64,000 nucleotides of DNA from Bacillus gaemokensis. GTDB lineage: Bacteria; Bacillota; Bacilli; Bacillales; Bacillaceae_G. Both the position numbers and the translations under genes were made by a program. The DNA is taken from NCBI RefSeq assembly GCF_001590835.1, contig NZ_LTAQ01000012.1, positions 452,925 through 516,924 of the forward strand. Reading direction: 5' to 3'. Below the pieces are notes generated by a model. The model did no database searches, was not told the origin of the DNA, and was given only the letters and a program-made list of their open reading frames with translations. Shown here one piece after another: positions 785-63,788 of this stretch. Position 1 is the first letter of the stretch. Every line of letters begins with the position of its first letter.

Positions 785-1047
785 CGACATCAAGAAGTGA
801 TGATGAGGACACGATCAATTTTTTACGATTCTCAGAGAGGGAGGCCTTTGGCTGTGAGCTTCCTAATACGGAAAAATGGATTACCACCTCTGAACTGCAG
901 CAGTGAACGAACAGCTAGTAATTGCTTGCCGGCAAAAACCGTTATCTAGACTTGAGAAATTGGTGAAGTGTGTAGCTTTACTAATGAAACAAGGGTGGAA
1001 CCACGAATACAACACTCGTCCCTTTTTTAGGGAGGAGTGTTTTTTTA
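785..1047 (+). promoter_or_regulatory. T-box leader (tRNA-sensing riboswitch), probably threonine
   Basis: The conserved T-box AGGGTGGAACCACG is at 992-1005, followed by a terminator stem with a T-run at 1012-1047. Upstream is a typical stem I with AGAGAGG, a GTGAG element and CTCTGAAC. The specifier triplet read from position 883-885 is ACC (Thr), followed by A as is usual. Uncharged tRNA binding would favour antitermination into the permease gene. The amino acid assignment is an inference from reading the loop by eye. Confidence 0.85.
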
Positions 1048-24551: not shown

Positions 24552-24728
24552 CTCTTATCAAGAGAGGTGGAGGGACTGAGCCCTGTGAAACCCGGCAACC
24601 GTCAACTTTTATGTTGAAATGGTGCCAATTCCTGCAAAGCGAATGCTTTGAAAGATGAGAGAAAGGGATAATGTTGATATATGCATATAAACCTTTCTGC
24701 TCATTCTAAAAGCGGAAAGGTTTTTTGT
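24552..24728 (+). promoter_or_regulatory. SAM-I (S-box) riboswitch
   Basis: CTCTTATCAAGAGAGGTGGA start, GGACTGAGCCC, GAAACCCGGCAACC, GGTGCCAATTCCTGC and the closing GATGAGAG are all present (aptamer 24552-24661). A terminator AAACCTTTC/GAAAGGTTT with a T-run is at 24689-24727. SAM binding causes premature termination, so low methionine turns on the transporter genes. Confidence 0.95.
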
Positions 24729-25009: not shown

Positions 25010-26035
25010 ATGATTTTATTAGAGAATGTAAAGAAAATATATAAGTCAAAAAGCGGTGATGTTACTGCTGTGGATGACGCCAATTTAAAAATAGATAAAG
25101 GCGAAATCTTTGGTGTGATTGGTTATAGCGGTGCTGGGAAGAGTTCTTTAATTAGATTGTTTAACCAATTAGAGAAACCTACTTCGGGCCAAATTACGAT
25201 AGCGAATCGTGTTATTTCTGCGATTACAGGGAGTGAGCTTCGAAAGGCGAGGCAAGAAATCGGAATGATTTTTCAGCATTTCAACTTACTTTGGTCACGA
25301 ACTGTACGTGAAAATATTGCTTTTCCGCTTGAAATTGCAGGAGTGGATAAAGCGCAGCGAAGAAAGCGTGTTGATGAGCTAATTCGTCTTGTTGGATTAG
25401 AAGGAAGAGAAGAGGCATACCCATCTCAATTAAGCGGTGGTCAAAAGCAGCGCGTGGGGATTGCAAGAGCGTTAGCAAACAATCCAAAAGTACTCTTATG
25501 TGATGAAGCAACATCAGCGCTTGATCCAGAAACGACAGATCAAATTTTAGATTTACTACTAGATATTAATAAACGTCTTGGCTTAACGATTGTATTGATC
25601 ACGCATGAGATGCATGTCATTCAAAAAATCTGTAATCGTGTTGCGGTAATGGAAAAAGGAAAGATTGTAGAAAGCGGGCCTGTACTAGAGGTGTTCCGTA
25701 ATCCTAAACAAGAGATTACAAAGCGATTTGTACAACAGATAACAGATTCTGAAGATACAAATGAAACAATTGAAAGCTTGTTAGAAAAATATCCAGATGG
25801 AAAAGTCATTCGTTTACAGTTTATTGGCGATTCAGTAGAGCGTCCTGTACTGCAACAATTAATGAGACGTGATGATATAGAGGTAAGTGTATTACAAGGG
25901 AATATTGCCCAAACAAACAATGGTTCTTATGGAAGTTTAGTTGTTCACTTAAATGGTGAGGAAGCAGCGATCCAGCAAGCGATAGTAGGAATCAATCAAG
26001 AGCAAGTAGAGCTGGAGGTGATTGCACATGGATAA
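25010..26035 (+). CDS. metN: Methionine ABC transporter ATP-binding protein
   Basis: 341 residues. Walker A GYSGAGKS at 38-45, signature LSGGQKQR, Walker B VLLCDEATS, then a C-terminal NIL domain (about 260-341), the methionine-sensing domain that inhibits transport. AAAAGGGGTG before ATG 25010. First gene of metNPQ behind the S-box. Confidence 0.97.
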   Translation: MILLENVKKIYKSKSGDVTAVDDANLKIDKGEIFGVIGYSGAGKSSLIRLFNQLEKPTSGQITIANRVISAITGSELRKARQEIGMIFQHFNLLWSRTVRENIAFPLEIAGVDKAQRRKRVDELIRLVGLEGREEAYPSQLSGGQKQRVGIARALANNPKVLLCDEATSALDPETTDQILDLLLDINKRLGLTIVLITHEMHVIQKICNRVAVMEKGKIVESGPVLEVFRNPKQEITKRFVQQITDSEDTNETIESLLEKYPDGKVIRLQFIGDSVERPVLQQLMRRDDIEVSVLQGNIAQTNNGSYGSLVVHLNGEEAAIQQAIVGINQEQVELEVIAHG

Positions 26036-34176: not shown

Positions 34177-34782
34177 TCAAAATGCTTTACGTTGATAAAT
34201 GATTAATGATACTCCCCATGAAATGATATAAACACATACGATAATAATCATAGCTATGGCATACAAAGTAGGTATAGATAAGCTGAAAATAGCATCGGTA
34301 ACTGTACTAAACTCTGTTGCAAGAAATTGTACAGCAGGTGGACCGAGATAAACTGAAGCTAAAAATGAAACGATGACAATGGACGACATATGCTTTTGCT
34401 TAAATTGATAAAATAGTGGAAATGTAACGGCTGCAAATAGCAAAAATAGTGCATTGCCCATTACAATATGCTCTACAGTAAATGACTTTTGGAAGATGAT
34501 AAGCATGACACTTGTTACAGAAATTGCCAACAACATGTAAACAATTGCCCCAATATAGCGTGAAGCGACAATTTCCTTACGGGTATATGGTAAAGAATTT
34601 AATAAAATATTTGTTTCAGTTTTTTCGTCATAGGCATGCGTATTAAAAGGAATAAAAATACTTGTAATTGTAAAGACCAAAATAGGGTGCGTGTTCATCA
34701 CAATAAAAAAGACGATACAGCCTAAATAAATGAGCAATTGTTTTTTTTGTAAAATTAAATCGCGTTTGATTAAATTAAGCAT
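34177..34782 (-). CDS. ABC-2 type permease of a YtrA-linked cassette
   Basis: 201 residues with six membrane segments; ABC-2 permease (ABC2_membrane_5-like) with an N-terminal LNLIKRDLILQKK amphipathic start and the SLPYTRKEIVASRY loop. It overlaps the ATPase gene by eight bases. Together they form a small exporter of the type linked to cell-envelope stress or antimicrobial peptides. Confidence 0.8.
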   Translation of the reverse strand: MLNLIKRDLILQKKQLLIYLGCIVFFIVMNTHPILVFTITSIFIPFNTHAYDEKTETNILLNSLPYTRKEIVASRYIGAIVYMLLAISVTSVMLIIFQKSFTVEHIVMGNALFLLFAAVTFPLFYQFKQKHMSSIVIVSFLASVYLGPPAVQFLATEFSTVTDAIFSLSIPTLYAIAMIIIVCVYIISWGVSLIIYQRKAF

Positions 34783-35641
34783 GATGCCCTACTCCTTTCG
34801 AGTAATACATGATGTCCTCTAATGAGGCGCGTTCAATCATAACTTCATTACCAAAAATTTGTTCAACTTCAGTTACATTATTCGTTAATGCCTCAAAGCC
34901 AGTCGGTGCACGATGAACATGCACAAAGGCTTTTTCTGTATCACGGTCTAATAAATCCGTACTCCCTTTTACTAAGGCATAGTTTTCCTCTACCTCATGA
35001 ATTGAATGATTAAAGATTAATTTTCCCTTTTTTAAAAAGGCAATAAAATCAGCGATGCGATCTAAATCCGTCGTAATATGTGTAGAGAAGAAAATTGTGC
35101 GATTACCATCAAGCATTAATTCATGCAGTAAATCGAGTAACTCACGTCTAAATATTGGGTCTAAGCCCGCTGTTGGCTCATCCATAATAATCAACTCGGC
35201 ATGATGTGATAACGCAAGCGCTAATGAAGCTTTCATCTGCATCCCTTTTGAAAAAGTTTTAATCGCTTTATTCATTGGCAATTCAAACTGTTCTATATAG
35301 CGCTTAAATATCGTTTCGTCCCAATTTTTATAAGCAGGCGCGACTATACGCTTAATATCCTTTAGATTTAAGCCTTCATAAAATACGTTACTATCAAAAA
35401 CAAAACCGATGCGCTCTTTAATTTCTTTTTCGTGCGTTGCGTAGTCTAAGCCGAAAATTTTAACCTCGCCCGCATCTGGCTTTAATAAGTTCATCATCAT
35501 TTTAATGGTTGTCGATTTACCGGCACCATTTGCGCCGATGAATCCTGTTACAAATCCTTTTTTGATTTGTAAATTTAATTGCTTTATCGAAAAACCTTGA
35601 AGTGTTTTACTAACATTGTGTAGCTCTACTATATTCTCCAT
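34775..35641 (-). CDS. ABC transporter ATP-binding protein (YtrB/BcrA-like)
   Basis: 288 residues. Walker A IGANGAGKST, signature FSKGMQMK (a SKGM form common in YtrB/YxlF ATPases), Walker B LIIMDEPTAGLDP, then a C-terminal extension of about 70 residues. Five bases downstream of the GntR gene; GAGGAG eight bases before ATG. Confidence 0.88.
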   Translation of the reverse strand: MENIVELHNVSKTLQGFSIKQLNLQIKKGFVTGFIGANGAGKSTTIKMMMNLLKPDAGEVKIFGLDYATHEKEIKERIGFVFDSNVFYEGLNLKDIKRIVAPAYKNWDETIFKRYIEQFELPMNKAIKTFSKGMQMKASLALALSHHAELIIMDEPTAGLDPIFRRELLDLLHELMLDGNRTIFFSTHITTDLDRIADFIAFLKKGKLIFNHSIHEVEENYALVKGSTDLLDRDTEKAFVHVHRAPTGFEALTNNVTEVEQIFGNEVMIERASLEDIMYYSKGVGHHA

Positions 35642-35646
35642 ACATC

Positions 35647-36018
35647 TTACTCCTCATATAAAATAGTTAATAATTCCCGCAGTTCCGTTAAGGGTAGCCC
35701 AATTTCCTTACTATTAGTAATGACAGACAATAATTGTTCTTCAATCACTTTTAATTTTTTCTCACGTACTACATCTAAATTTTGTTCAGCAACAAAAGAG
35801 CCCCGACCTACAATTGAATAAATAAATCCTGCTTTTTCTAACTCCTCATATGCGCGTTTTGTCGTAATAACACTAATTTGCAAATCTTTTGCGAGTTGGC
35901 GCATTGACGGGAGGGGCGATCCCTCTTTTAAATCACCAGTTAAAATTAGCGACTTTATTTGATTTTTAATTTGTTCGTAAATTGGCTCCTTAGAACTATT
36001 TGAAATAATTATTTGCAT
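35647..36018 (-). CDS. GntR-family regulator, YtrA subfamily
   Basis: 123 residues. Winged HTH (PIYEQIKNQIKSLILTGDL, LPSMRQLAKDLQISVITTKRAYEELEKAGFI) and a short dimerising tail of about 45 residues, which defines the YtrA subfamily. These repress their own ABC exporter operon, here the two genes downstream. The palindrome over its promoter is the likely binding site. Confidence 0.9.
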   Translation of the reverse strand: MQIIISNSSKEPIYEQIKNQIKSLILTGDLKEGSPLPSMRQLAKDLQISVITTKRAYEELEKAGFIYSIVGRGSFVAEQNLDVVREKKLKVIEEQLLSVITNSKEIGLPLTELRELLTILYEE

Positions 36019-36936: not shown

Positions 36937-38352
36937 CTGAATATAAATAAAGAAGTAATTCTTCACCTTTATCATACAAACGATATACATAGCCATTTTG
37001 AAAATTGGCCACAGATTTCTCGGTTTGTACTAGAAGAGAAAAAGCGCCGGCAAGCAGCTGGAGAGGCTGTTTTTACACTAGATATTGGCGATCACGTAGA
37101 TCGTTTTCATCGTATAACGGAAGCGACAAATGGACGGGGAAATACGAAGTTATTAAATGAAGCGTTATATGATTATGTAACGATCGGAAATAATGAAGGA
37201 ATTACGTTAGCGAAAGAGCATCTAGACCACTTATATGATGAAGCGAAATTTGAAGTACTTGTAGCTAATTTATTTGAAACAAATGGAATGCGTCCGAAGT
37301 GGGCAGAAGCTTATACACTTCATACGACTGCAGACGGCATTACAATAGCCTTTATTGGTTTAACGGTGGCGTATCCTGAGTTTTATGAAATGTTAGATTG
37401 GCATATTGAAGATCCAATTGAGCATTTAGAATTGATTTTAGAAGAAGTAAAAGAGCAAGCAGATGTTACTGTCGTTCTTTCTCATCTTGGAAAGAATGCA
37501 GATGAATATATGGCAGAGCATTATGATATTGATGTGATTTTAGGAGCACATACGCATCATTTGTTTGAGCACGGTGTTCTTATGAATGGAACTCTTCTTT
37601 GTTGCGGAGAAAAGTGGGGGCACTACGTTGGTCATGTTCAGCTAACGGTAGATAGAGAGACAAAGAAAGTCGTGAAAAAAGACGGAAGAGCGATTGCTAC
37701 AAAAAGTTTGAAAGTTTCTGGAGATGCATTACCGACGATTGAAGCGTTGCAAGAAGAAAGTAAGAAAATTATGGAAGAGCCAATTATTGATTTGAAGGAG
37801 CCATTGCCGATTGATTGGTTTCAGGAGACGACATTTTCCAGTATGTTAGCAAGTGCACTTAAAAGATGGTGCAATGCTGAAATTGGGATGGTTAATGCGG
37901 GTGTGCTGTTAGACGGATTGGAAGAAGGCATTGTCACACGCGGGGATATCCACAGGGTTTGTCCACATCCTATTAATCCATGTGCTCTGCAAATGAAGGG
38001 AAAAACATTACGAGAGGTTATTTTAAAAGCACGTCGTCCAAACATGGAACAACTTGAAGTAAAAGGACTCGGTTTTCGCGGGAAAGTGATGGGGAAAATG
38101 ATCTATGCTGGTGTAGAAGTCATTCCAGATACGATTCCTGGAAATAAAATTTTACTTGAAGATGTGCTCATTAATGGGGAATCTTTAGAATTAGATCGTA
38201 TATATACTGTCGGGACAATCGATATGTTTACATTCGGTTACTTATACCCAGAGCTATCCACACTTTCTGAAAAACAATATTATATGCCAGAATTATTGCG
38301 AGATGTTTTAATGGAGATGTTGATAACTTATACATCTTCAATCAAACTATAG
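36937..38352 (+). CDS. yunD: YunD-like metallophosphatase / 5'-nucleotidase, apparent CTG start
   Basis: About 471 residues. Metallophosphatase motifs: YHTNDIHSHFENW, LDIGDHVDR, IGNNEG (GNHE variant), VLSHLGKNAD and LGAHTHHLF, followed by a C-terminal 5'-nucleotidase domain. No ATG, GTG or TTG exists in frame before residue 118, and the first metal motifs lie upstream of that. CTG 36937 is eight bases after AGAGGAGG, and a stop lies just upstream in frame, so CTG (or ATA 36943) must start the protein. Hydrolyses nucleotides or UDP-sugars by family. Next to yunC and yunB as in B. subtilis. Confidence 0.85.
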   Translation: MNINKEVILHLYHTNDIHSHFENWPQISRFVLEEKKRRQAAGEAVFTLDIGDHVDRFHRITEATNGRGNTKLLNEALYDYVTIGNNEGITLAKEHLDHLYDEAKFEVLVANLFETNGMRPKWAEAYTLHTTADGITIAFIGLTVAYPEFYEMLDWHIEDPIEHLELILEEVKEQADVTVVLSHLGKNADEYMAEHYDIDVILGAHTHHLFEHGVLMNGTLLCCGEKWGHYVGHVQLTVDRETKKVVKKDGRAIATKSLKVSGDALPTIEALQEESKKIMEEPIIDLKEPLPIDWFQETTFSSMLASALKRWCNAEIGMVNAGVLLDGLEEGIVTRGDIHRVCPHPINPCALQMKGKTLREVILKARRPNMEQLEVKGLGFRGKVMGKMIYAGVEVIPDTIPGNKILLEDVLINGESLELDRIYTVGTIDMFTFGYLYPELSTLSEKQYYMPELLRDVLMEMLITYTSSIKL

Positions 38353-58211: not shown

Positions 58212-58425
58212 GAAAGACCGCAATCATTGCGGTCTTTTTATTGAGGAACATAAAGTGTCCGTGCGTTAGTAAAATTAAAGAGAAATCTGTTGGTGAGATA
58301 TTTCGTTCTTTAAGTGCTCGTAAAATACGATTCTCGTTTTCAGTTCTTCCAGTATCGACAATGATGGTTTTATCACCACGAATTAGAAAGATATTAGAAA
58401 AGCCTAAGGATAGTTGTTCAATCAA
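58192..58425 (-). pseudogene. Truncated metallo-beta-lactamase-fold gene
   Basis: From TTG 58423-58425 (GAAGGTG upstream) the frame reads IEQLSLGFSNIFLIRGDKTIIVDTG and FSLILLTHGH, the normal beginning of an MBL-fold hydrolase, then breaks off in the middle of the HxHxDH metal site and runs into the ABC operon terminator and gene end. About 50 residues are authentic. The rest was deleted. Follows the vWA gene of the Ter-type operon by 17 bases, and may have been its last gene. Confidence 0.75.
58212..58245. terminator. Terminator of the ABC operon
   Basis: AAAGACCGCAAT/ATTGCGGTCTTT stem with T-run. It is also used by the truncated gene from the right. Confidence 0.85.
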
Positions 58426-58441
58426 AATAACACCTTCTATA

Positions 58442-59110
58442 TTAGAATAAAATTCGTTTCTTCTTCGCCTCTTTTATCCACAATGGAAATTCATTTAATA
58501 AATTGTCATACAACGCTTCATCTGTTGTTTTTTCGATATCTCGAATGTAGAAAAAGTTAGCATTATCGATGAAACGTCCATCCATTTCATCAAGTTTTCT
58601 TAGCACATCAAATTTGCCATTGCCAATTCCGACGAACTGCCAAAAGATTGGCTGGTTAGAAGACGTTACAACTGGTTTTTGAATTCCTTTTTTACAGCCT
58701 CCATCATTAATGAAAATGACAAAAGCAGGTTCTTCACTTTTCTCCTCAATTGTATATTTTCTAATGATATCTTCCATGACTTGTGGTTCTTCATTTCGCC
58801 CAAACTTATGAATAGAAGGGTTGTTTAAAATATGTTTATCTACATAACTAACAAAATCTTTCTCAGTAACAGCTGGTAATCGAGAAAATTCATTATCATA
58901 CACCCAAATATCTAGTGCGCCGTCATCATCAAATTGACTTGCAACGGCAAGAACGCGTTCAACTACTTCTTGTACAGTACCATTTTTGTATAATGTTCTC
59001 ATGGAACCAGAAATGTCTAATACGAGTGCCACTTTTGCGACGACTCCTGTTAATTTCTTTTTCTCTAATACAACGCGCACCGCTTCTTTTCTTAATGTAA
59101 TTGTAGTCAA
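58442..59110 (-). CDS. vWA-domain protein (TerY/TerF-like)
   Basis: 222 residues. Von Willebrand A fold with MIDAS motif LVLDISGSM (Asp32, Ser34, Ser36) and INDGGC. The sequence type VEKKKLTGVVAKVALVLDISGSM... occurs in tellurium-resistance (Ter) linked vWA proteins, which bind TerD-type proteins. TTG start 59108-59110 with GGAGCG upstream. Last intact gene of the operon. Confidence 0.82.
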   Translation of the reverse strand: MTTITLRKEAVRVVLEKKKLTGVVAKVALVLDISGSMRTLYKNGTVQEVVERVLAVASQFDDDGALDIWVYDNEFSRLPAVTEKDFVSYVDKHILNNPSIHKFGRNEEPQVMEDIIRKYTIEEKSEEPAFVIFINDGGCKKGIQKPVVTSSNQPIFWQFVGIGNGKFDVLRKLDEMDGRFIDNANFFYIRDIEKTTDEALYDNLLNEFPLWIKEAKKKRILF

Positions 59111-59169
59111 TATAATCGCTCCTTTTTTTATTATGTAACAAGGATGCCGATTCTTGAAGTATGTATAAA

Positions 59170-59985
59170 TTAGGCAGTAGGAAGAGAACTATGGATCATT
59201 TGAAGAGTCTTACTCACGATTTCCTCCGCTGCATATATACCAATTTCAGTTGTTTTTGTAATGTGAGGTAATAAACTCCTTTGCTTTGTTTCGAGTTCAC
59301 CATGAAGAGGCGCAAATGCATGATTTGCTCCTTCTAGCATGCATAGATCAAGCAAAGAGTCTCCAGCTGTAATGACGGTGCTTGCCTGGAGTTTTTCTTT
59401 TATGTATTGAACAGCATCCCATTTGTTTACTGGTTTTGGCACGAAATATAATTTTCTACCCTGTAGAGAGTGATCCCATCCTTGTTCGTCTAGCCAATCG
59501 GTAAACTCTTTTAACTCGTCATATGGAATGTTTTCACGTCTGATGATGCAATAGTGAAATAGGTGATCCGCTGTTTTTTGTGAAATGACCCAGTCCCCAT
59601 GGGCAATTCGTTGAAACTCCGTTAGTACAGCTTCTTTTTCTAAGCATTCTGCAGAAAGCTTCTTTTGGATGCTTTTTTTCCAAACGACATCTTGTTTACC
59701 GTTATGAAGAATATTGCCACCGTTGCTTGTGATCGCATATTCCGGAATGACTTCAGTTTGAAATAGTGTAATGCGCTGAAACTGCTCTATTGTTCTTGTT
59801 GTCACAGGAACGAATTGAACCTGTAATTGTAGCTGTTGTAATAATGAAATAGCCTTATGTGTCATAAAAGAGATTTCTTTGCCATCCAATGTCTCGATGA
59901 GCTGAATATCTTCATCTTCTATAATGGTGCGAAATGATTTACGAGAATAAATGAGTGTTTGATCAAGGTCACTAGCAAAAATCAT
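59170..59985 (-). CDS. HAD hydrolase of the Ter-type operon
   Basis: 271 residues. HAD motif I SDLDQTLIYS, motif IV TAGDSLLDLCML; Cof/sucrose-phosphatase-like cap. Predicted to remove a phosphate from the metabolite made by the neighbouring PRTases. ATG 59983-59985 overlaps the stop of the PELOTA gene in ATGA and has GGGAGGA upstream. Confidence 0.85.
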   Translation of the reverse strand: MIFASDLDQTLIYSRKSFRTIIEDEDIQLIETLDGKEISFMTHKAISLLQQLQLQVQFVPVTTRTIEQFQRITLFQTEVIPEYAITSNGGNILHNGKQDVVWKKSIQKKLSAECLEKEAVLTEFQRIAHGDWVISQKTADHLFHYCIIRRENIPYDELKEFTDWLDEQGWDHSLQGRKLYFVPKPVNKWDAVQYIKEKLQASTVITAGDSLLDLCMLEGANHAFAPLHGELETKQRSLLPHITKTTEIGIYAAEEIVSKTLQMIHSSLPTA

Positions 59986-61100
59986 GAATGTTTCCTCCCG
60001 ATAGGCATGATGAGCCCGCAGCACGAGTACGTCATATCTTTATAGATTTCTACGGGCACATTTTTTTCTTCTGCAAGAAGTAGGACGTGCTGTAAGTCCG
60101 GATTGTTTTTATCCCGAATTAAGATTTTCCAAGATACTCGTCTGAGTAAAACACGCGTTGTTTCCCCAACTCCGGGTTTAATTAAGTTTATATCCTCAAT
60201 TTCAAAGTGCTTTTGAATCGAGGTGATATCTTGCAATCCTTGCCAAGATGGTTCTGTATATGTCGAGATAATGTGCTCTAGTTGTTTTATTACATCGGGG
60301 CCAATGGTAGGAAACAATGCTGTGACTTCGTCGATGAAGAAGTTAGATAGGTCTTCTTTTTCTAGCTCTTTATAATATTTAACGCCGTGAAAATCATGTG
60401 GGCCAATGTATGTGTCATTTAAAATAGTACGACTAATCAATCCAGAAACGGTCGCGTTTAAACAAGCGCTTGGAATGAGAAAGTCCTCACGCGTTCCATA
60501 AATTGAAGTGCAGTAACCAGGATCAGCAAGTACAGCCATGCAGTCTGAAATGTATTCGTGGTTTTTTTCATTAAATGTACGAACGGCTTGACGCAGTTCT
60601 TTTTTGATCGCACCTTTTCCAGTCCAACCATCGATGAACTGAATGGTCTGATCTGGATGCTGCTCTAAAATGTATTGAAGCGCATTCTCATCGATTCCGC
60701 GCCCTCGAATAATAGAAATGCAATAATGTGGTAAATTAAGTTTATATTGATAACGAATGTACCGTTTTATTAAAATGCCAATTGGTGTGCCCGCTCTTGC
60801 TAGTGAGACAAGGACAAGATTTTTTCCTTTCGTCTTTATTATTTGCTCAGCTACTACCCCAGCAGCAATTGCCAGTTTCCGTTTGTATCGCTCTAGTGAA
60901 GTAAGGAATAAATCCATGTAGGACTTCGATGGCTTATATTCAATTGGAAGCATTTCAGAGTAATGTGTGCCTGATTGAATGGCTTGTTCTCTTTCTTCTG
61001 TTGAACGTTCTTCTATAACATCACTAATATTTTTTAATAGAAAAATAACATCATTGGCAGCATAACTACCAATGCGCTGTAATGTTTTTGTCTCTGTCAT
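59982..61100 (-). CDS. PRTase-like protein with C-terminal PELOTA RNA-binding domain (StiP family)
   Basis: 372 residues. N-terminal phosphoribosyltransferase-like domain, with LVSLARAGTPIGILIKRYI, YCISIIRGRGIDENAL and the PRPP-type loop FIDGWTGKGA (155-164). C-terminal domain of about 60 residues (GVGETTRVLLRRVSWKILIRD...) of the PELOTA-RNA-binding type. Annotated in databases as cysteine protease StiP, a doubtful name; Ter-system analyses predict a nucleotide-like ligand enzyme. ATGA overlap with the preceding gene. Confidence 0.83.
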   Translation of the reverse strand: MTETKTLQRIGSYAANDVIFLLKNISDVIEERSTEEREQAIQSGTHYSEMLPIEYKPSKSYMDLFLTSLERYKRKLAIAAGVVAEQIIKTKGKNLVLVSLARAGTPIGILIKRYIRYQYKLNLPHYCISIIRGRGIDENALQYILEQHPDQTIQFIDGWTGKGAIKKELRQAVRTFNEKNHEYISDCMAVLADPGYCTSIYGTREDFLIPSACLNATVSGLISRTILNDTYIGPHDFHGVKYYKELEKEDLSNFFIDEVTALFPTIGPDVIKQLEHIISTYTEPSWQGLQDITSIQKHFEIEDINLIKPGVGETTRVLLRRVSWKILIRDKNNPDLQHVLLLAEEKNVPVEIYKDMTYSCCGLIMPIGRKHS

Positions 61101-62479
61101 ATTTCTTCACCTTCGCTTTCTACTAAGCTCTTAAATGAAATGATATGAATGAGCGGAATTACAGTTTGCAATTGCGTTAAAAGGGGACGCAAGGTTTCTT
61201 CTTGCCAATCACGCTCGATAAAAAGAAAGACTTCATCATAGTCGTTAGACTCGATGTTATAAAAATAATTTGTAATGCCATCGTCTTCCGGGCTTTCATA
61301 AGAAAAACGATTGTGAATGGCGTATTGTATATCTTCGCTGTCGGGGTGAATCGGACTGCGTGTAGTCGATTGATATGAAATGTTTGTCCCCATTTCAGCA
61401 GCAATTCGCATAGGAAGATACATAAACTCGCCAGTTCCTAGGCATAGCGTCTTTTTGCCTTTTCTTTTTTTCTTTAACTCACTGCCAATCTTTCTAGCAA
61501 AAGAGTGGATATGCTTCTGTTCATCAGCTGAAATACCGAAGCGACCTGTATAGTTTATGTAGCTGACATTATGTTCTATAGATGTATACGGTGAAGCAGG
61601 ACATGAAATCATATGTTTTTGTATCCTTGATTCTATTGATTTATAAGGAGTTGCATCATGTGAAAAGGAAGTAGCGATCGGACTCCCGATTACTTTAATT
61701 GAACCGCTTAATAGAGAAATAACATGAATCGTGATACCAAGCTCTTTTTCTAAATCGGTAAATTGTTTTCGGTGTTCATCAGAACGCCAATCGAGTAAAG
61801 AAGCGATGGTGTACTCTTTTCTAGGGAATTTCTCCTGGATGGACCTGATAATATTAAGTGCCGTTTTTCCTGTTGTCATTTCATCATCGACAAGAACGAT
61901 TTGATGCTCGTTTTGAAAATAACTTTTATCCACATAGCAACGATGTGAAGTTGCATGCGAATGCTCTTCTTCAAATGTAATGATCGGTTCTATTTCGGAT
62001 ACCGTTTCCCTTGTTGTATGCACATATTTCGCATATTTAAAGCATTGAAACATAGCGTGACCTAATGCGGTAGCTGTTTCAGCAAACCCGATAAATAGAA
62101 TTTCTTTTTCTAAAGGGAATTGATACTGCAAAATTGCTTCTAGTTCATAATCGACACGACTTTTAGAAGAAAGTAAATCGAGAATTTCTTTTTGAAACGG
62201 ATGTTTTGATTTATGCAGTACCTTGATATACCTTGCTGCAAGAGCACACCCGCCAGCTAAAGAGACAGCTGGTGGGGTAGGAAGGTGTTTTCCTAAAATG
62301 GTGCTCACAAATAAGAAACCACGTTTCTTATTGATTCTTGCTGCCATTTGAAAGAGCTGATCTGGTGATAATGAATATGGATTATGAAGTATGTCTAGGT
62401 GAACTGTAATTTTATTTAAAATGTGGTACGTGCTGCTTTGATTGTTCAGTAAGGAGATCGATGAAAGTTTGTTGTTCAT
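61097..62479 (-). CDS. Phosphoribosyltransferase with TRSP domain
   Basis: 460 residues. PRTase core with the PRPP loop IVLVDDEMTTGKTA (about 195-208) and the glycine-rich SLAGGCALAARYI region. The C-terminal TRSP domain shows STTRSPI and HNRFSYESPEDDGITNYFYN. It forms, with the PELOTA protein, the predicted nucleoside-forming pair. Its ATG lies 68 bases inside the end of the lyase gene with GGGGTG just upstream. Confidence 0.83.
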   Translation of the reverse strand: MNNKLSSISLLNNQSSTYHILNKITVHLDILHNPYSLSPDQLFQMAARINKKRGFLFVSTILGKHLPTPPAVSLAGGCALAARYIKVLHKSKHPFQKEILDLLSSKSRVDYELEAILQYQFPLEKEILFIGFAETATALGHAMFQCFKYAKYVHTTRETVSEIEPIITFEEEHSHATSHRCYVDKSYFQNEHQIVLVDDEMTTGKTALNIIRSIQEKFPRKEYTIASLLDWRSDEHRKQFTDLEKELGITIHVISLLSGSIKVIGSPIATSFSHDATPYKSIESRIQKHMISCPASPYTSIEHNVSYINYTGRFGISADEQKHIHSFARKIGSELKKKRKGKKTLCLGTGEFMYLPMRIAAEMGTNISYQSTTRSPIHPDSEDIQYAIHNRFSYESPEDDGITNYFYNIESNDYDEVFLFIERDWQEETLRPLLTQLQTVIPLIHIISFKSLVESEGEEI

Positions 62480-63620
62480 GTAGCACCCCGTAAATATTAG
62501 ATTTTAGTAATGTTTTTCGCGCCCAATTATAATGGGGCTTCACTTCATTCATTTTGTTAGAGAAGCTACTTTTCATAACGCCGTTATACGTATGAGCATT
62601 TTCAAAAATAGCTTTTGCATCTAAATAATCCTCTAGCGTTACAACATGCATAGCTTGTACGAGTTTAATGTGGGAAGGGTGGATGACTGTTTTGCCAATT
62701 AACCCGTTTGCTTGATCAAGTAATACCTCATGAATCAACCCATCTTCATAACGTTGAAGCATTTCCTCTCGCATTGTGAGTCCAGCGTTGCCGAATGATT
62801 CACGAAATGGTGTTTGCCGGAGCTGTGGTTTTAATACGCGTTGTTGATTACCGAAGTACTCCCATACAGGTCCAGAGATAATATATTCATCTTTGGATCT
62901 AGAAAAAATATTGATAATATCAGAAATGCAATCGCGAATGACAGAAATATCATAGATGGTCGTATCTTTGTTGCGACGAATACTGAATATGCCTGAAAAA
63001 TCGGTAGCACCAATGCGAACATTTAAAATGGAATCGCGGTAAGAATCTAGTATCGCTTTAATTGCTAATAACGCTTCAATGCGTGTTTCTTTATACATAA
63101 TTTCAGGAGATTCTAAAATAGGCATCCCATAAAGTGAAAGGGAGTATTTTTCGTTTATATTTCTTAGTGTATGAATATAAGGCAGTCCGTTAGCTGGTGT
63201 GAACTTTGGAAGGACAAAACCACTTATACAGTGAACCGCATTTCCTAGTTCAAGAATGAGTGAACGCATTTGCTTTGGCTCACGAATTCGAATAAAGAGT
63301 AGTGGTATGTCTGATTTGTGAAGCTTGTTTGCATCAATCATATGCGCAAGTAGTTGCATTTGGATGACAACATTTTTCTCGGCAAAATTCACATCTCCAT
63401 CACTAATGGAGTCCTCTAAACAAAGTACAATTGATGTTGCACCTTTATGCTTTTGGGTAGCAATGTCGTCTGCAATGGTTTCTTTTGTTCCAGGTGTATA
63501 TAGAGTAGCACCTAATGCGTAAGCTAATTGATTTTTTGACATGTCTTTTGAAAATTCAATTGGTTCCTGATAGAAAAGTGTTTGTTTTGCTTCAAGGGAT
63601 AAATAGGAAAAATGCTTCAA
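62412..63620 (-). CDS. CitE/HpcH-like C-C bond lyase of the Ter-type operon
   Basis: 402 residues. HpcH/HpaI aldolase fold: VLCLEDSI (acidic metal residues), IRIREP, VRIGATDFSG and TVIHPSHIKLVQAMH. Longer than CitE (about 290). In Ter-linked clusters it is predicted to act in making a precursor of the nucleoside-like product. TTG start at 63618-63620 preceded by AAGGTGGTGA. First gene of the operon. Confidence 0.83.
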   Translation of the reverse strand: MKHFSYLSLEAKQTLFYQEPIEFSKDMSKNQLAYALGATLYTPGTKETIADDIATQKHKGATSIVLCLEDSISDGDVNFAEKNVVIQMQLLAHMIDANKLHKSDIPLLFIRIREPKQMRSLILELGNAVHCISGFVLPKFTPANGLPYIHTLRNINEKYSLSLYGMPILESPEIMYKETRIEALLAIKAILDSYRDSILNVRIGATDFSGIFSIRRNKDTTIYDISVIRDCISDIINIFSRSKDEYIISGPVWEYFGNQQRVLKPQLRQTPFRESFGNAGLTMREEMLQRYEDGLIHEVLLDQANGLIGKTVIHPSHIKLVQAMHVVTLEDYLDAKAIFENAHTYNGVMKSSFSNKMNEVKPHYNWARKTLLKSNIYGVLHEQQTFIDLLTEQSKQHVPHFK

Positions 63621-63703: not shown

Positions 63704-63788
63704 AAATTTTCAAAGAAAAAGATGGATTGTAGGATACATGTAGAATTTTGTTAGTGGATTGTTTGAAGAAATGAAAGGAAGAAGAAAA

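What the first reader, a model, noticed from the sequence alone, without database searches (positions are those of the whole stretch)
58442..63620. Five-gene Ter-type biosynthetic operon without TerD or TerC
CitE-like lyase, PRTase/TRSP, PRTase-like/PELOTA, HAD and vWA proteins are in one operon with ATGA overlaps. This set corresponds to the module that Anantharaman, Iyer and Aravind predicted to make a nucleoside-like metabolite in Ter stress systems. No product has been shown as far as I know, and here no TerD, TerC or TerB gene is within the window. The operon may work alone or with distant Ter proteins.
Basis: partly seen in the sequence, partly recalled or inferred. Interest (0 to 1): 0.75.

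Follow-up and report, generated by a model that had tools for sequence, protein, structure and literature searches.

The report
Ter enzyme operon without nearby TerD
Five neighbouring genes of a Bacillus-like bacterium form the known but chemically unsolved enzyme set of bacterial Ter stress systems, with none of the usual TerD genes in view, which mainly offers a clean way to test what the set makes and whether it needs TerD.

Summary
The five genes are real: lyase PF15617, PRTase_2+TRSP, StiP+PELOTA_1, a generic HAD, and TerF-type vWA. tblastn found no TerD, TerB, TerC, YceG, YceH or ATP-grasp relative elsewhere in the window. The window ends 0.38 kb upstream of the operon, and that is the side where 78 of 88 related loci carry TerD, so that side is essentially untested.

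The set is the known Ter biosynthetic module. In a Bacillales sample, 61 of 397 genomes have StiP and all 61 have TerD; 30 of the other 336 have TerD. All 62 StiP copies lie 3.2-6.9 kb from a TerD. Three of the four nearest relatives read TerD(x3)-lyase-PRTase-StiP-HAD-YceG-YceH-vWA, so the window looks like that locus with TerD and YceG/H lost or moved. Two other separated modules have TerD elsewhere on the same record. Most likely it makes a PRPP-derived, nucleoside-like molecule that works with TerD encoded elsewhere. Product and TerD in trans are inferred, not shown. No cysteine is invariant among five divergent StiP proteins, so the 'cysteine protease' name is unsupported. New member of a known kind; moderate interest.

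The parts
62412..63620 (-). CitE/HpcH-type C-C bond lyase (PF15617), TTG start with AAGGTGGTG ribosome site (by eye)
   Evidence: Pfam 1.5e-126; profile matches citrate lyase and malyl-CoA lyase structures, best 3qll E 2.2e-8; E69 D70, R111, R113, K139, E170, D207, H314 invariant in 22 sequences
61097..62479 (-). PRTase_2 domain plus C-terminal TRSP domain
   Evidence: Pfam 2.3e-71 and 7.6e-44; D198 D199 E200 G204 T206 of the PRPP-loop region invariant in 33 sequences
59982..61100 (-). StiP domain (predicted PRTase-like) plus PELOTA_1 RNA-binding-type domain
   Evidence: Pfam 8.8e-109 and 9.5e-36; D157-G163 (DGWTGKG) and E313, T315, R316, L319, R320, R321 invariant even in 5 divergent sequences; ATGA overlap with the PRTase
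59170..59985 (-). HAD-IIB phosphatase; ATG at 59985, ATGA overlap with StiP
   Evidence: Pfam Hydrolase_3 7.2e-12; D6 D8 T10, T62, K188, D209 D213 invariant in 17 sequences
58442..59110 (-). free-standing TerF-type vWA protein with DISGS metal-site motif (by eye)
   Evidence: Pfam PF10138 2.3e-77; 73% identical to a solitary copy in G001 (Metabacillus fastidiosus) and about 70% to copies that end the Ter locus in L007, L008 and L130
58255..58428 (-). start of a metallo-beta-lactamase-like ORF (by eye) cut short after THGH, downstream of the vWA gene; not counted as a module part
   Evidence: translation; no match in the loci searched with it

Best explanation
This is the Ter-linked biosynthetic module (lyase, PRTase-TRSP, StiP-PELOTA, HAD) plus a TerF-type vWA protein. 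It is encoded apart from the TerD and YceG/YceH genes with which it forms one locus in near relatives. Most likely mechanism: PRTase_2 joins PRPP to a base-like acceptor; the CitE-type lyase makes or remodels the acceptor by a metal-dependent C-C bond reaction; StiP-PELOTA carries out a second ribosyl-type step in complex with the PRTase; the HAD removes phosphate to give a nucleoside-like small molecule. TerD-family proteins made elsewhere in the genome then bind it or depend on it under metal, oxidative or envelope stress, and the vWA protein helps to assemble the response. Shown here: genes, order, conserved family residues, co-occurrence and natural fusions. Inferred: every chemical step, the product, TerD in trans, and the stress role.
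For: Domains and intact family-invariant residues. Four-gene order in 74 of 88 loci. StiP implies TerD: 61 of 61 against 30 of 336 StiP-negative genomes (Fisher p 2e-49, not corrected for kinship); 14 of 14 Actinomycetota with StiP over cut-off; 17 of 18 further loci's genomes. 62 of 62 StiP copies within 6.9 kb of TerD. Three of the four nearest relatives, L007, L008 and L130, have TerD(x3)-lyase-PRTase-StiP-HAD-YceG-YceH-vWA. Separated modules with TerD elsewhere on the same record: virus G400, 26 kb; Brevibacillus plasmid CP139434, 116 kb. PRTase and StiP are one open frame in 16 of 88 loci, so they probably act together. B. cereus ATCC 14579 makes a TerD, BC_0443 (PMC4162614 passage).
Against: The window's genome is not held, so TerD in trans is not seen. 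That the window is cereus-group DNA rests on recall only. The side on which 78 of 88 loci carry TerD is visible for only 380 bp. The single nearest locus, L006, has TerD but no YceG, YceH or vWA on its contig. No metabolite is known. One StiP-positive genome (G401, a Blastocatellia MAG) has no TerD. The sampled genomes are related, so the counts are not independent.
Confidence: 0.7

Rival explanations
1. TerD is not distant: it lies just beyond the right edge of the window, behind the divergent ORF at 63759, so the locus is an ordinary Ter island cut by the window edge.
For: TerD lies on the lyase (5') side in 78 of 88 related loci, and the window holds only 380 bp there.
Against: In L007 the TerD match ends about 70 bp before the lyase, whereas here a divergent ORF starts 138 bp upstream of it. 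YceG/YceH, between HAD and vWA in L007, L008 and L130, are also missing. B. cereus TerD is BC_0443, while the BC_49xx-50xx numbering of the window's neighbourhood is recalled.
Confidence: 0.14
2. The module has become independent of TerD and its product acts through the vWA protein alone.
For: Only the TerF-type vWA is kept in the operon; the family-invariant residues are intact.
Against: Every genome with StiP over the cut-off in the two phylum-level samples has TerD; the one TerD-less case is a MAG (G401).
Confidence: 0.07
3. The module's product is placed on an RNA instead of being released: StiP-PELOTA is an RNA-targeting ribosyl-type enzyme.
For: PELOTA_1 is present in the StiP protein, and its weak PDB matches are L7Ae/eL8 proteins (E 0.22); E313, T315, R316, R320 and R321 are invariant across five divergent sequences.
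Against: No RNA substrate is known; the L7Ae similarity is below significance; the HAD phosphatase suits a free nucleotide better.
Confidence: 0.08
4. Ordinary pyrimidine or purine salvage operon.
For: It contains a PRTase with a PRPP motif.
Against: Salvage models score far below cut-off (best 16 of 150 bits), and no salvage operon known to me (recall) has this lyase, StiP and vWA set.
Confidence: 0.01

Closest known systems
   Same: Same lyase-PRTase-StiP-HAD genes in the same order, with 58-62% (lyase), 48-53% (PRTase) and 66-68% (StiP) identity; vWA at the end of the locus in L007, L008 and L130
   Different: There TerD copies precede the lyase in all four and, in L007, L008 and L130, YceG-YceH lie between HAD and vWA; L006 shows no YceG, YceH or vWA on its contig; none of TerD, YceG, YceH is in the window
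Plasmid ter locus of enterobacteria (IncHI2 p39, L002)
   Same: Lyase, PRTase, StiP, HAD-like and vWA proteins
   Different: Order differs (ATP-grasp, PRTase, HAD, StiP, lyase), it has an added ATP-grasp, and TerZ, TerA, TerB, TerC and TerD are adjacent on the other strand; StiP only about 37% identical
B. subtilis yce (TerD/TerC/YceG/YceH) operon (gene content recalled)
   Same: Belongs to the same wider Ter network
   Different: The control B. subtilis genome has TerD but no StiP match: the reverse half of the system
Acinetobacter jumbo phage ME3 Ter genes (L004)
   Same: PRTase, HAD, StiP, TerD and vWA genes (PMC7824862 passage)
   Different: On a phage, no lyase match in the 17 kb read, and TerD adjacent

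Membership tests
Ter-linked biosynthetic module | C-C_Bond_Lyase PF15617, PRTase_2+TRSP and StiP+PELOTA in one gene run | tested here: met
Ter-linked biosynthetic module | accompanying HAD phosphatase with intact motifs | tested here: met
Ter-linked biosynthetic module | TerD within the locus (usual, not universal) | tested here: inconclusive
   none in the 64 kb seen; relatives 62 of 62 within 6.9 kb; but only 380 bp seen on the side where 78 of 88 loci carry it
Ter-linked biosynthetic module | TerD somewhere in the genome | not testable with these tools
   no genome held
Ter-linked biosynthetic module | product is a nucleoside-like metabolite | not testable with these tools
   prediction from the literature (summary passage in PMC7824862)
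TerF-type vWA (PF10138) | profile score above cut-off | tested here: met
   260.2 against 29.4 bits
HpcH/CitE lyase superfamily | sequence relation to solved CitE/malyl-CoA lyases and conserved acidic residues | tested here: met
PRTase fold for the StiP domain | detectable homology to PRTases | tested here: inconclusive
   hhalign probability 0.4%, no PRTase among PDB hits up to E 10; only the DGWTGKG motif, judged by eye
Cysteine protease (the Pfam name of StiP) | conserved catalytic cysteine | tested here: not met
   no invariant Cys column in 5 divergent StiP sequences; two Cys columns are invariant among 32 closer relatives
Pyrimidine/purine salvage PRTase | score above an NCBIfam equivalog cut-off | tested here: not met

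The most novel reading that the evidence does not exclude
The separated operon is a complete, self-contained pathway in which the PRTase-StiP pair uses its PELOTA domain to attach a lyase-built base to a specific RNA under stress, with TerD reading the outcome in trans: a stress-induced RNA-modification system rather than a free nucleoside messenger.
Probability: 0.07. Interest if true: 0.8.

Novelty: new member of a known kind. Interest (0 to 1): 0.4.

Why it matters
The Ter biosynthetic module is widespread (StiP in 61 of 397 sampled Bacillales genomes; a StiP match in 2567 of 72,556 plasmid records), yet the listings of the searches made here show no paper reporting its product, and a 2023 Klebsiella study states that the molecular mechanisms behind the ter operon's function remain unknown (PMC9933665 passage). 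A copy not linked to TerD would let enzyme genes and TerD genes be removed separately. The one-way dependence found here (StiP implies TerD, but not the reverse) is a concrete prediction that the product needs TerD.

Tried and rejected
Own-genome search for TerD: no genome is held. So no close relative was available, and the cereus-group assignment rests on recall of protein similarity. Window DNA against annotated records: sufB found 6 phage records at 60-80% identity; 32-56 kb found 2 plasmid-collection records, best 81% over 12%; 40-64 kb in phages and 1-24 kb in plasmids found nothing. An L-lactate dehydrogenase of the window was compared with solved structures to find the species; that did not settle it.

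TRSP as a second PRTase-like repeat (suggested by eye from GFAET..TTRE against GTGEF..TTRSP): hhalign probability 1.1%, P 0.047; not supported.

A known RNA family at the operon: none; the two Rfam matches of the window lie elsewhere. Promoter scan 19 sites against 19.4 expected, terminator scan 3 against 3.9. Defence-system library: only weak matches of the PRTase to PRTase_III-A and ShosT models.

Anantharaman et al. 2012 (PMC4104200) is not held; its content was seen only through a summary passage in PMC7824862. Of the seven papers opened (PMC8425097, PMC4162614, PMC7824862, PMC9604106, PMC4595770, PMC9933665, PMC3912134) only passages were read; all others were seen as search listings.
Full report
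OBSERVATION. Five - strand ORFs fill 58442-63620. Pfam places them as C-C_Bond_Lyase, PRTase_2+TRSP, StiP+PELOTA_1, a HAD hydrolase and vWA-TerF-like, with scores far above the curated cut-offs except the HAD, a generic HAD-IIB enzyme above cut-off for Hydrolase_3 and S6PP but below all NCBIfam cut-offs. The PRTase/StiP and StiP/HAD junctions are ATGA overlaps. The lyase and PRTase genes overlap by 68 nt, and the vWA gene follows the HAD gene after 59 nt with its own AAGGAG ribosome site (by eye). The long lyase/PRTase overlap is a family trait: 63 of 78 pairs overlap, median 59 nt; StiP/HAD overlap in 87 of 102 pairs, 43 of them by exactly 4 nt (a few automatic ORF ends are odd). tblastn at E<=1e-4 with 25 queries (TerA, B, C, D, F, X, Y, Z, PP2C, ATP-grasp, YceG, YceH and module proteins) hit only these five genes in the window. 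G+C of the region (0.37) does not stand out from the window (0.34-0.41).

RELATIVES. Lyase-PRTase-StiP-HAD are contiguous and co-directed in 74 of 88. TerD is present in 84 of 88 loci; of the 72 loci with at least 8 kb on both sides, 71 have TerD, at most 7.2 kb away. TerD lies on the 5' side of StiP in 78 of 88 and on the 3' side in 31; YceG and YceH are both present in 34 of 88, and a TerF/vWA match in 14 of 88. The four loci without TerD are L049, L072 and L079 (short on one side) and L086. L086 is a virus contig whose TerD genes lie about 26 kb away on the same contig; L079's genome has 16 TerD matches; L072's MAG has none; L049's genome is not held.

CO-OCCURRENCE. In an evenly drawn sample of 397 genomes of one order (that of G001, the genome of the Metabacillus fastidiosus locus L006), StiP is in 61 and TerD in 91; all 61 StiP genomes have TerD, and 30 genomes have TerD without StiP. 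All 62 StiP copies have a TerD on the same contig 3.2-6.9 kb away by start coordinate (a second StiP fragment in G109 not counted apart). In 296 Actinomycetota genomes, the Streptomyces seed genome included, StiP is found in 15, 14 above cut-off, two of these only as partial matches; all 14 have TerD, and the fifteenth, below cut-off, has none. Of 18 further genomes behind StiP loci (19 of the 80 named loci were asked for, one not held), 17 have TerD; the exception is again the Blastocatellia MAG. So the module is almost never without TerD, while TerD is often without the module. The sampled genomes are not independent, and the Fisher value (2e-49) ignores that.

WHAT IS DIFFERENT HERE. The four nearest StiP relatives (66-68%) are L006, L007, L008 and G347 (L090/L130). 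In L007, L008 and L130 TerD(x3) precedes the lyase, and YceG, YceH and the same vWA protein (about 70%) follow the HAD. In L006 TerD precedes the lyase but YceG, YceH and vWA are not on the contig; in that genome (G001) the vWA gene is solitary on another contig, and all five TerD matches lie on the contig of the module. The window is therefore best read as such a locus after loss or relocation of the TerD and YceG/H parts, the vWA gene being kept. A clear separated case is the Brevibacillus halotolerans plasmid CP139434: lyase, PRTase and StiP without an adjacent HAD, TerD 116 kb away on the same plasmid. The window's own TerD could not be looked for. B. cereus ATCC 14579 makes a TerD encoded as BC_0443 (PMC4162614, passage), and two TerD proteins appear in its thiol proteome (PMC8425097, passage); that the window belongs to the cereus group is my recall, not a call.

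MECHANISM. The proteins keep the invariant residues of their families: lyase E69-D70, R111, R113, K139, E170, D207, H314, related by profile to citrate lyase and malyl-CoA lyase structures; PRTase D198-D199-E200, G204, T206; StiP D157-G158-W159-T160-G161-K162-G163; HAD D6, D8, T10, T62, K188, D209, D213. That these are catalytic rests on recalled knowledge of the superfamilies. In 16 of 88 loci PRTase-TRSP and StiP-PELOTA are one open frame (10 Streptomyces; also Pelosinus, Alkaliphilus, Paenibacillus, Marinisporobacter, Lysinibacillus), so the two proteins probably work as one complex. A PRPP-dependent step, a CitE-type C-C bond step and a dephosphorylation fit a nucleoside-like product, as proposed by Anantharaman, Iyer and Aravind (recalled, and summarised in a passage of PMC7824862). 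None of these reactions is shown. The Pfam name 'cysteine protease' for StiP is not supported, because no cysteine is invariant among five divergent members, although two are among 32 closer ones. A PRTase fold for StiP is likewise not supported by the profile comparisons I could run; that point needs a structure.

VERDICT. The most likely state is a complete biosynthetic module acting with TerD encoded elsewhere. Interest is moderate: if the separation holds beyond the window edge, the arrangement is unusual (0 of 62 in the order sample) and practical for experiments, but the module itself is known.

Noticed in passing
window 37005-38352: A 5'-nucleotidase/metallophosphoesterase-type gene (NF006934 and UshA-like hits) matches only later parts of its models; the preceding sequence has no long open frame, so it looks like a broken gene.
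   Followed up: partly
window 58255-58428: Metallo-beta-lactamase-like ORF (by eye) cut short after its first THGH motif, just after the vWA gene and followed by a hairpin (by eye); no match in the loci searched with it.
   Followed up: partly
L003 (MT836648.1): A record labelled Bacteriophage sp. carries Ter genes (PRTase, StiP, lyase, YceG, YceH, three TerD; no HAD match) beside ordinary bacterial genes (TatD-, MoaC- and MogA-like by eye), so it is probably bacterial DNA.
   Followed up: no
L072 / G401: Blastocatellia MAG contig with a Bacillota-like module (57% StiP identity) and no TerD in the MAG; possibly a misbinned contig.
   Followed up: partly
window 34177-36018: GntR regulator, ABC ATPase close to the PmtA exporter model (333 of 350 bits) and ABC2 membrane protein, an exporter-like gene group.
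   Followed up: no
window 791-1026 and 24552-24661: T-box leader and SAM riboswitch above Rfam gathering scores, the latter about 350 nt upstream of the ABC-ATPase gene with a NIL domain at 25010.
   Followed up: no
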